Below are positions 23,321 to 24,827 of a DNA stretch of 37,832 nt, in pieces. Numbering within the stretch: position 1 is the first letter of the stretch; each line of letters begins with the position of its first letter. Under the pieces are notes generated by a model. That model made no database searches. It was not told the origin of the DNA and saw only the letters and a list, made by a program, of their open reading frames with translations. The position numbers and the translations under genes are program-made. The DNA is from an uncultured Lachnospiraceae bacterium. Lineage in GTDB: Bacteria; Bacillota; Clostridia; Lachnospirales; Lachnospiraceae. Location of the stretch: NCBI GenBank assembly GCA_902780465.1, contig CACZFV010000012.1:1-37832 (forward strand), written 5' to 3'.

Positions 23321-23503
23321 ATTTAGAGTAGAAGGACGCGTGCCCAAAGGACAAATCGTTCCCGCCGGAGAGTTTCGCGAGCAGCGCGTCGCCGCGACGG
23401 CGACCCAACGATCTTATGGAGCCCAAAGCGGCGTCCGGATCGCTGCGAAGTGAAACCGACAGAGGGAATGTTGTCCTTCGGACACGCGTCCTTCTTTATT
23501 TAG
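23318..23503. repeat. 164-bp MITE-like inverted-repeat element with flanking 9-bp direct repeats
   Basis: The core is 23331-23494. Its outer 24 bases (23331-23354 and 23471-23494) are inverted repeats matching at 22 of 24 positions. The match continues in broken form inward: TTCCC, GTTTC and GCAGCG blocks at 23359-23386 pair with 23441-23468, so the transcript would fold into a long hairpin. The centre holds a perfect hairpin GTCGCCG-CGA-CGGCGAC (23388-23404). TTTATTTAG occurs at 23318-23326 and again at 23495-23503, like a target-site duplication, with four extra bases on the left. The right copy contains the stop codon of the neighbouring kinase gene. No open frame or transposase is present. 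Could be a MITE, a dispersed palindromic repeat or a structured RNA. Confidence 0.65.
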
Positions 23504-24678
23504 TCTAAGATGCGGAGCAGACAGTCGTGGTCATCGTCTGCGTTCAGAATGACGTTCAGGATCCTCAGAGTCAGAGGATCGCCCAGGGTCTCCCGGCTGT
23601 CCTGGAAGTTCTCCCATACAAGTTCGATGGGCTCGCCGTACCTGTGCTTTCCGAAACCTCCGCGCAGGATGTCGTTCAGGGCGTCCAGGTTGTTCCCTGT
23701 CTCCGTGGTGCCGTCGGTCATGAGCTCAGCGATCTTACGGTAGAATCCGGCGGCGTCCCGGAAGCTGCTGCCGTCCAGACGGTAGGTAAGACGTTCCCGG
23801 GCTGCTTCCCTGGCCTTCCGGCTGAGGGGCTCAGGGTGATTCAGACGGCGGACCAGCAGGGGAAGTGCCTTTTCGAACTTCACACCGTACCAGTGGTCCG
23901 GATCGTCCGCGGTCTGCAGGAGGGACTCCACGATGAAATCCGACGCGAGAACGGCGGCGTTGAAAGCGCTGCTTCCCTGCAGCAGGGCTCCGGTGAAGGC
24001 GGCGGCGAAACAGTCCCCCGTACCGTGGGAGCTTCTGACGACTTTGTCGGTGAAGCAGAAGCGTACCTCACCTTTAGCGGCATCGAAGACTGCGTTCCCG
24101 AGTTTTCCTTCTTCAAAAGAAATGCCCTTCAGGATCACGCACCCGGCGCCGAAGGCCGAGAGCTTTTCCAGAAGATCCCTTACATAGGATTCTTCCAGTT
24201 CCCCTTCCATATATTCAGTCCCTGTGAGGAAACACGCTTCCGTCAGGTTCGGGAGCAGGATATCTGCGCATCCGCACAGCCCGGCCATAGCGCGGACGTA
24301 AGTCTCGTCGAAGCCGCGGTACAGTTTTCCGTGATCCGCCATTGCCGGATCCACGATCCGGAGTCCTCCCGGAAGGAGACAGCTGTTCATGATGTCTTTT
24401 ACCATGCTGATCTGGGCAGGGCTGCCGAGATAACCGGTCAGGACGGCGTCAAAAAGGATCCCTTCTTTTTCCCATCGTTCCCGGATCTTCGGGATATCCT
24501 CCGTAAGATCCCGGAACCAGACGTCCTGAAAGCCGCCGGTGTGCGTAGAGAGCACGGCGGAAGGCAGGATACAGGTCTCGATGCCGCAGGCAGAGAGTAT
24601 AGGCTGCGCCACAGTGAGGGAGCACTGGCCGACGCAGGAGATGTCCTGGATCGTAAGTATACGTTTGTTCGTGATCAT
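23500..24678 (-). CDS. Pyridoxamine kinase fused to a C-terminal barstar domain
   Basis: A 392-residue protein with two domains in one uninterrupted frame. Residues 1 to about 280 match PdxK/PdxY-type kinases (ribokinase fold) that phosphorylate pyridoxal, pyridoxamine or pyridoxine: DISCVGQCSLTVAQPIL at the start, AVLSTHTGGF (41-50), and HGTGD (218-222) with catalytic Asp 222. This is already the full kinase length. Residues about 298-392 match barstar, the intracellular inhibitor of barnase-type RNases: GNNLDALNDIL (328-338) aligns with GENLDALWDCL, keeping barstar Asp35 and Asp39 as D332 and D336. LVWENFQDS aligns with LEWRQFEQS, and the last 20 residues align without gaps. Trp38 becomes Asn and Glu76 becomes Asn. 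No barnase or other toxin gene is nearby. GGAGG precedes ATG 24678. Confidence 0.85.
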   Translation of the reverse strand: MITNKRILTIQDISCVGQCSLTVAQPILSACGIETCILPSAVLSTHTGGFQDVWFRDLTEDIPKIRERWEKEGILFDAVLTGYLGSPAQISMVKDIMNSCLLPGGLRIVDPAMADHGKLYRGFDETYVRAMAGLCGCADILLPNLTEACFLTGTEYMEGELEESYVRDLLEKLSAFGAGCVILKGISFEEGKLGNAVFDAAKGEVRFCFTDKVVRSSHGTGDCFAAAFTGALLQGSSAFNAAVLASDFIVESLLQTADDPDHWYGVKFEKALPLLVRRLNHPEPLSRKAREAARERLTYRLDGSSFRDAAGFYRKIAELMTDGTTETGNNLDALNDILRGGFGKHRYGEPIELVWENFQDSRETLGDPLTLRILNVILNADDDHDCLLRILD

Positions 24679-24698
24679 TTCTTTTTCCTCCGTCCTCT

Positions 24699-24757: not shown

Positions 24758-24827
24758 TTGACAAACTTCCTGCAGGGGCATATATTAGGCATTGAAGATG
24801 TTAGCACTCTCGTGATATGAGTGCTAA
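24758..24827 (+). promoter_or_regulatory. SigA promoter and CIRCE operator of the heat-shock operon
   Basis: TTGACA (24758-24763) and TATATT (24781-24786) are 17 bp apart. The CIRCE element follows: TTAGCACTC (24801-24809), nine-base spacer, GAGTGCTAA (24819-24827), a perfect match to the consensus. CIRCE is bound by HrcA, the first gene product, giving negative autoregulation relieved by heat or unfolded protein. Confidence 0.96.

What the first reader, a model, noticed from the sequence alone, without database searches (positions are those of the whole stretch)
23500..24678. Pyridoxamine kinase fused to a barstar-like RNase inhibitor
One uninterrupted frame encodes a full-length PdxK/PdxY-type kinase (residues 1 to about 280, catalytic motif HGTGD at 218-222) followed by about 95 residues matching barstar. 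The barstar residues that contact the barnase active site, Asp35 and Asp39, align with D332 and D336 in GNNLDALNDIL, and the last 20 residues align without gaps. Barstar proteins normally stand alone as toxin immunity proteins. Joining one to a vitamin B6 salvage kinase suggests a sensor, a housekeeping antidote to an incoming RNase toxin, or use of the fold for another partner. I know of no described system of this type.
Basis: partly seen in the sequence, partly recalled or inferred. Interest (0 to 1): 0.8.

Follow-up and report, generated by a model that had tools for sequence, protein, structure and literature searches.

The report
RNase antidote fused to vitamin-B6 kinase
In one small genus of bacteria, the likely antidote to the cell's own secreted RNA-cutting enzyme sits not beside that enzyme's gene but on the tail of a vitamin-B6 kinase, and a second lineage carries a related tail on a different enzyme.

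Summary
Window 23500-24678 (-) is one frame: a pyridoxamine kinase (NF005491, 263 bits) with a C-terminal barstar domain (PF01337, above cut-off). It is not an artefact: 6 of 7 genus genomes carry the fusion.
All 7 encode a barnase (PF00545) with a lipoprotein-type signal, followed directly by recJ, with no barstar beside it. In 6 of 7 the kinase-fused domain is the only barstar above cut-off. The seventh (G001) has none, and its barnase has lost the catalytic histidine. In the family, 82 of 94 barnase copies have a barstar within 0.5 kb; barnases from barstar-bearing genomes keep the active site in 92 of 92 copies, against 3 of 6 without barstar. The fused domain belongs to a separate barstar clade ("GGFG" type, 18 of 124 rows). 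In a second genus the same clade is fused to a HAD phosphatase (2 of 3 genomes); the third keeps a classical barstar beside barnase.
Most likely it is the cytosolic antidote to the cell's own barnase, relocated onto a housekeeping enzyme: a new variant of the barnase-barstar pair. Binding is inferred; no structure was obtained. Against it: 3 of 10 sampled genomes with GGFG domains lack barnase, and one intact barnase (G262) has no barstar.

The parts
23500..24678 (-). pyridoxamine kinase-barstar fusion gene, 392 aa plus stop
   Evidence: single open frame; same fusion in 6 of 7 genus genomes, own included
23839..24678 (-). pyridoxamine kinase domain, residues 1 to about 280
   Evidence: NF005491 residues 4-276, 263 bits; PF08543; closest solved chain 3mbh, E 8e-46
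24013..24027 (-). kinase motif HGTGD, residues 218-222
   Evidence: position checked; GTGD invariant in 9 of 9 aligned kinases; its catalytic role is recalled
23788..23838 (-). variable linker, residues about 281-297
   Evidence: about 15 residues shorter in L005 and L006 than in the other four fusions
23503..23787 (-). C-terminal barstar domain, residues 298-392, GGFG type
   Evidence: PF01337 37.7-40.8 bits; clade in barstar trees; profile match to solved barstars
23671..23673 (-). codon of D336, equivalent of barstar Asp39
   Evidence: invariant in 12 of 12 aligned domains
23683..23685 (-). codon of D332, equivalent of barstar Asp35
   Evidence: D, S or N among relatives
24686..24691 (-). 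GGAGGA, likely ribosome-binding site
   Evidence: sequence read directly; function inferred

Best explanation
The C-terminal domain is the cytosolic barstar that protects the cell from its own barnase. The barnase is made with a lipoprotein-type signal and would act outside or on the cell surface; copies that fold before export would cut cytosolic RNA, so an inhibitor must always be present. In most of the family that inhibitor is a small classical barstar encoded just downstream of barnase. In this genus a barstar of another clade, now the tail of a housekeeping pyridoxamine kinase, has taken over, and no classical gene lies between barnase and recJ. Shown: the fusion, its conservation, that it is the only barstar found above cut-off, the barnase with intact active site, the missing neighbour barstar, and that loss of antidote goes with loss of barnase integrity. 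Inferred: that the fused domain binds and blocks this barnase, that the kinase still works, that the operon barstar was ancestral to the genus, and that fusion to a constitutively made (in known relatives dimeric, recalled) enzyme secures supply.
For: Fused domain is the only PF01337 match above cut-off in 6 of 7 genus genomes. All 7 carry one PF00545 barnase, a close relative of solved barnases (E about 1e-28, ungapped over 96 residues), with a lipobox-like LGAC, LVAC or LVGC in 7 of 7. In G005, one contig, barnase and fusion lie about 343 kb apart. Family: 88 of 93 barnase genomes have a barstar among 397 genomes (Fisher p 5e-63, not corrected for relatedness), and 82 of 94 barnase copies have one within 434 bp on the same strand, 81 downstream. 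Five genomes have barnase-barstar-recJ; 7 of 7 genus genomes and G355 have barnase-recJ with no barstar between (recJ checked by TIGR00644 in G000 and G004). The residues at E73/R83/R87/H102 are intact in 95 of 98 barnases; the 3 exceptions (G001, G141, G292) are all among the 6 copies from genomes without barstar (p 1.3e-4, not corrected). G001, the one genus member whose kinase lacks the tail, is one of these (His to Gln). Independent repeat: in G355 and G719 the same barstar clade is fused to a HAD phosphatase, with barnase on another contig (G355 tetrad intact, G719 by eye); G720 of the same genus has the bare HAD enzyme and a classical barstar beside barnase. This fits a prediction noted, though for G720 that prediction allowed three outcomes. 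GGFG-type domains form one clade (18 of 124 rows, SH-aLRT 99). Barstar is 'specifically associated' with barnase-like toxins (PMC3482391, passages).
Against: The Asp35 equivalent is not conserved, and the Tyr-Tyr-Gly stretch typical of classical barstars here is absent. Of 10 genomes in the family sample with a GGFG domain, 3 (G368, G349, G160) have no barnase. No convincing covariation between barnase contact residues and barstar type. G262 has an intact lipoprotein-type barnase and no barstar found. The place of G001 within the genus is unresolved, so loss of the tail and decay of barnase cannot be ordered, and G001 may never have had the tail. Stand-alone relatives in L036 and L039 sit among immunity-type genes, which fits a role against incoming toxins. 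Three sub-cut-off PF01337 matches (E 0.28-0.42) in G002, G003 and G004 were not followed up; G003's fused domain itself scores E 0.0012. G000 is 83% complete, so a second barstar could be missed there, less so in G002, G004, G005 and G006, listed as 100%.
Confidence: 0.72

Rival explanations
1. The tail is an immunity domain against barnase-family toxins delivered by other bacteria, made constitutive by fusion to a housekeeping kinase; the cell's own barnase is incidental.
For: Stand-alone relatives in L036 and L039 lie next to DUF2262 and SF0329 genes, in L039 also SMI1_KNR4, UPF0167 and DUF4274; SMI1_KNR4 is a known immunity family, the rest are immunity-like by recall. Three of 10 family-sample genomes with GGFG domains lack barnase (G368, G349, G160).
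Against: Each genome with the kinase fusion also has an intact own barnase and no other barstar above cut-off; absence of the tail goes with a dead own barnase in G001; G720 against G355 and G719 shows exchange with the barnase-operon barstar. The two roles are not exclusive.
Confidence: 0.15
2. The barstar fold has become a regulatory or oligomerisation module of the kinase and no longer binds an RNase.
For: Fused to an enzyme with its GTGD motif kept; barstar-esterase fusions with degenerate barstar exist in genomes without barnase (G009, G136).
Against: D336 and much of the core are invariant across fused and stand-alone forms (21 of 121 alignment columns), while the linker varies; the same domain is fused to an unrelated enzyme (HAD) in G355 and G719; kinases of G001 and of three other genera of the family do without it.
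Confidence: 0.07
3. A neutral read-through fusion: a barstar gene happened to lie downstream of pdxK and the stop was lost.
For: Several N-terminal barstar fusions look like loss of the barstar stop before the next gene (G301, G187, G259, G110).
Against: Kept with both domains intact in 6 genomes whose proteins are 51-67% identical to the window's, and paralleled with another partner. Neutral origin is compatible with present function as antidote.
Confidence: 0.05

Closest known systems
Barnase-barstar pair (PF00545/PF01337), Bacillus type
   Same: Exported-type RNase with conserved active site and a barstar in the same genome; fused domain scores above Pfam's barstar cut-off
   Different: Inhibitor is not a free 90-residue protein next to barnase but the tail of a pyridoxamine kinase at another locus; it belongs to a separate barstar clade; the RNase has a lipoprotein-type signal
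Simple barnase-barstar toxin-immunity gene pairs of the polymorphic toxin survey (PMC3482391)
   Same: Imm-Barstar for a barnase-like toxin; linked pairs are common in the family (82 of 94 copies)
   Different: Toxin and immunity genes unlinked, immunity domain carried by a housekeeping-type enzyme
Pyridoxamine kinase NF005491 (PRK07105)
   Same: Residues 4-276 match above the equivalog cut-off
   Different: About 110 extra C-terminal residues with a barstar domain; the tail-less relatives L008-L011 are 275-286 residues long
HAD phosphatase-barstar fusion of G355 and G719
   Same: Same GGFG barstar clade on the C-terminus of a metabolic-type enzyme, unlinked intact barnase
   Different: Unrelated partner enzyme; separate event

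Membership tests
Barstar (PF01337) | Profile match above curated cut-off | tested here: met
   37.7 and 40.8 bits against 23.4
Barstar (PF01337) | Asp39 equivalent in NLDxLxD motif | tested here: met
   invariant in 12 of 12 rows
Barstar (PF01337) | Asp35 equivalent (DxxxD motif, PMC3482391) | tested here: inconclusive
   Asp in the window's protein; Ser in 2 of 6 fusions, Asn in 3 of 6 stand-alone relatives
Barstar (PF01337) | Barstar fold | not tested
Barstar (PF01337) | Tight binding and inhibition of barnase | not testable with these tools
   needs biochemistry
Barnase-barstar pair | Barnase in the same genome with intact active site | tested here: met
   6 of 6 genomes with the kinase fusion
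Barnase-barstar pair | Barstar gene adjacent to barnase | tested here: not met
   barnase followed directly by a RecJ-type frame in 7 of 7 genus genomes
Pyridoxamine kinase NF005491 | Equivalog score above cut-off, GTGD motif | tested here: met
   263.3 bits against 231; HGTGD
Pyridoxamine kinase NF005491 | Kinase activity on B6 vitamers | not testable with these tools
   needs enzyme assay

The most novel reading that the evidence does not exclude
Antidotes to a cell's own secreted RNase are repeatedly captured by housekeeping enzymes, so that antidote supply is welded to central metabolism; the barnase-barstar encounter may in turn report leaked RNase to the kinase and tune vitamin-B6 supply, making the fusion both shield and sensor.
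Probability: 0.15. Interest if true: 0.85.

Novelty: new variant of a known kind. Interest (0 to 1): 0.65.

Why it matters
Immunity proteins are thought of as small neighbours of their toxins. Here the sole detected antidote seems to have left the toxin operon and become part of a metabolic enzyme, in two genera with different partners. It offers a natural experiment on how toxin-antidote linkage is broken, shows where to look for 'missing' antidotes (as tails of housekeeping enzymes), and makes the dependence directly testable. If the kinase responds to barnase binding, it would also be a new link between RNase leakage and cofactor supply.

Tried and rejected
Sequencing or assembly artefact: rejected, same fusion in 6 genomes including the assemblies named. 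Phage origin: the tail found no relative in the IMG/VR collection (35 stretches matched a pattern, none confirmed). Spread of the kinase fusion outside the genus: a genome-contig scan with one peptide pattern gave 10 loci, 4 with the fusion (all counterparts of genus genomes) and 6 stand-alone; a profile search of 392 order genomes gave 5 hits, of which only the window's own has a long frame; in 391 class genomes 73 have a barstar and, by frame length, no further kinase fusion was seen (only the four other frames of 176 aa or more were read). In the family sample only frames of about 275 aa or more were read for fusions. Coevolution of barnase contact residues with barstar type: 9 against 79 of 98 copies, no convincing signal (left out: G001, G141, G292, G111, G201, G262, G354, G173, G310 and the second copy of G263). 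Order of tail loss and barnase decay in G001: unresolved.

Papers: searches of the open-licence PMC library. No title or abstract start in the listings describes a kinase-barstar fusion or this clade (one search listed 10 of 60 papers). I read only the barstar passages of PMC3482391; the others were seen as listings.

Full report
What is there. The gene at 23500-24678 on the minus strand is a single frame of 392 codons. Its first 280 residues are a pyridoxamine kinase (NF005491, 263.3 bits against a cut-off of 231; nearest solved chain 3mbh) and residues 298-380 match barstar (PF01337, 37.7 bits, 40.8 for the last 120 residues alone, cut-off 23.4). A profile of the tail and its relatives finds only barstars in the PDB (14 sequences, best E 0.0012).

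The fusion is real and conserved. In 61 genomes searched with the protein, the six other members of the genus all have the kinase, and five of them plus the window's own genome have the fused tail: 6 of 7. Counterparts in named records are 'Fusobacterium naviforme' ATCC 25832, Lachnospiraceae KA00044, Lachnospiraceae ACC2 and MAG RUG11135; ACC2 is, from memory, Stomatobaculum longum. G001's kinase has 286 residues and no tail; it lies beside a cysK-like gene, as in L032 and L034 (cysK by TIGR01139 in L032; by eye elsewhere), and is thus probably the positional counterpart. The kinases L009-L011 from three other genera of the family have 275-279 residues.

The partner. All 7 genomes carry one barnase (PF00545, E 1e-17 to 2e-20), 253 residues from the first possible start in the window's genome, with a hydrophobic stretch ending in a lipobox-like LGAC, LVAC or LVGC in 7 of 7 (a loose pattern that also hits 65 of the other 91 copies). 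It aligns without gaps over 96 residues with solved barnase. Upstream lies a thioredoxin-reductase-type gene where it was read (G000, G002, G004, G005; TIGR01292 above cut-off in G004 and just below in G002), downstream recJ, with no barstar between. The fused tail is the only barstar above cut-off in the six genomes with it; at E up to 1 three weaker matches appear in G002, G003 and G004 and were not followed up; G001 has none.

The family background. In 397 genomes of the same family (Lachnospiraceae by the titles), 106 have a barstar and 93 a barnase; 88 have both. Of 94 barnase copies 82 have a barstar on the same strand within 434 bp, 81 of them downstream. Genomes G391, G415, G117, G273 and G214 show barnase-barstar-recJ, the arrangement from which the genus's barnase-recJ could come by loss of the middle gene. 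The 12 unlinked copies are: G000, G004, G005 (kinase fusion), G355 (HAD fusion), G013 and G354 (GGFG barstar elsewhere), G222 (classical barstar elsewhere), and five with none (G262, G111, G201, G141, G292). G111 and G201 are ends of longer frames with a SUKH-type gene next door (PF09346 above cut-off for G111, 31.3 bits, below it for G201, 19.4). The gene after G262's barnase has no Pfam match.

The natural experiment. Adding the four genus copies not in that sample gives 98 barnases. The residues at E73, R83, R87 and H102 (numbering; catalytic roles recalled) are all present in 95. The three exceptions are G141 (broken frame), G292 and G001 (His to Gln). All three come from the six copies in genomes without barstar; 0 of 92 from barstar-bearing genomes are affected (p 1.3e-4, not corrected for relatedness). 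Thus the one genus member without the fused tail is also the one with a disabled barnase. G262 goes the other way: intact barnase, no barstar seen.

A second case. G355 has the same type of barstar on the C-terminus of a HAD phosphatase (PF13419 139 bits, PF01337 42 bits), with barnase against recJ and no barstar beside it. Its genus was then searched: G719 has the fusion, G720 has the HAD enzyme without tail. Before looking I noted the prediction that G719 would have an intact unlinked barnase and G720 no barnase, a dead one, or a separate barstar. G719's barnase is on another contig and intact by eye; G720 has a classical barstar directly after barnase. G719 and G720 are 80% and 73% complete, so absence there is weak.

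Clade. A tree of 97 barstar domains puts 16 sequences picked by a GGFG-type motif on one side of a branch (SH-aLRT 100). With all 114 family matches read (124 rows in all) the group has 18 rows and support 99. Columns are few, so the inner order is weak. Stand-alone members lie among immunity-type genes (L036, L039) or between an IMP dehydrogenase and an HD-type gene (L035, L040, the latter gene weakly supported). No GGFG domain of the family sample or the genus sits just downstream of barnase; G365's lies upstream. Of 10 family-sample genomes with a GGFG domain 7 have barnase (G000, G004, G005, G013, G354, G355, G365) and 3 do not (G368, G349, G160), so the clade as a whole is not tied to own barnase.

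Other barstar fusions. Classical barstars are also found at the N-terminus of a GNAT acetyltransferase (G301), a PLP-dependent enzyme (G187), a DAPG-hydrolase-like protein (G259, below cut-off), a hydrolase (G110, below cut-off) and a PBP-GGDEF protein (G1018), and degenerate ones on esterases in genomes without barnase (G009, G136). So barstar is fused more often than assumed, which tempers the novelty of fusion as such; what stands out is the C-terminal GGFG fusions that stand in for the operon barstar.

Mechanism and limits. I hold that the tail is the cytosolic antidote to the cell's own barnase (0.72). Binding, fold and kinase activity were not tested; the structure server was busy at every attempt. 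The Asp35 equivalent varies, which may mean a shifted interface. Whether fusion serves expression, avidity through a kinase dimer (recalled for the family) or sensing is open.

Noticed in passing
window 23330-23495: 25-nt inverted repeat arms (92% complementary, 116 nt apart) just downstream of the fusion gene; parts of the stretch recur in 4 other places of the genome at 76-88% identity, perhaps a small mobile or structured element; no Rfam match in the window.
   Followed up: partly
window 24801-24827: Sequence TTAGCACTC-N9-GAGTGCTAA (CIRCE operator, by recall) between the divergent fusion gene and hrcA; found before hrcA in 3 of 4 named relatives too (L032, L033, L034, not L041), where other genes lie between it and the kinase.
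   Followed up: partly
L086, L087 (G009, G136): Barstar-like domain lacking the Asp39 equivalent at the N-terminus of an esterase, in genomes without barnase: a possible repurposed barstar.
   Followed up: no
L090 (G187), L089 (G301): Barstar fused to the N-terminus of a PLP-dependent enzyme and of a GNAT acetyltransferase, directly downstream of barnase.
   Followed up: partly
L184 (G262): Lipoprotein-type barnase with intact active site but no barstar detected in the genome; the frame just downstream has no Pfam match.
   Followed up: partly
L025 (G040): Pyridoxal-kinase-like frame with a long insert of apparently repetitive residues in the middle.
   Followed up: no
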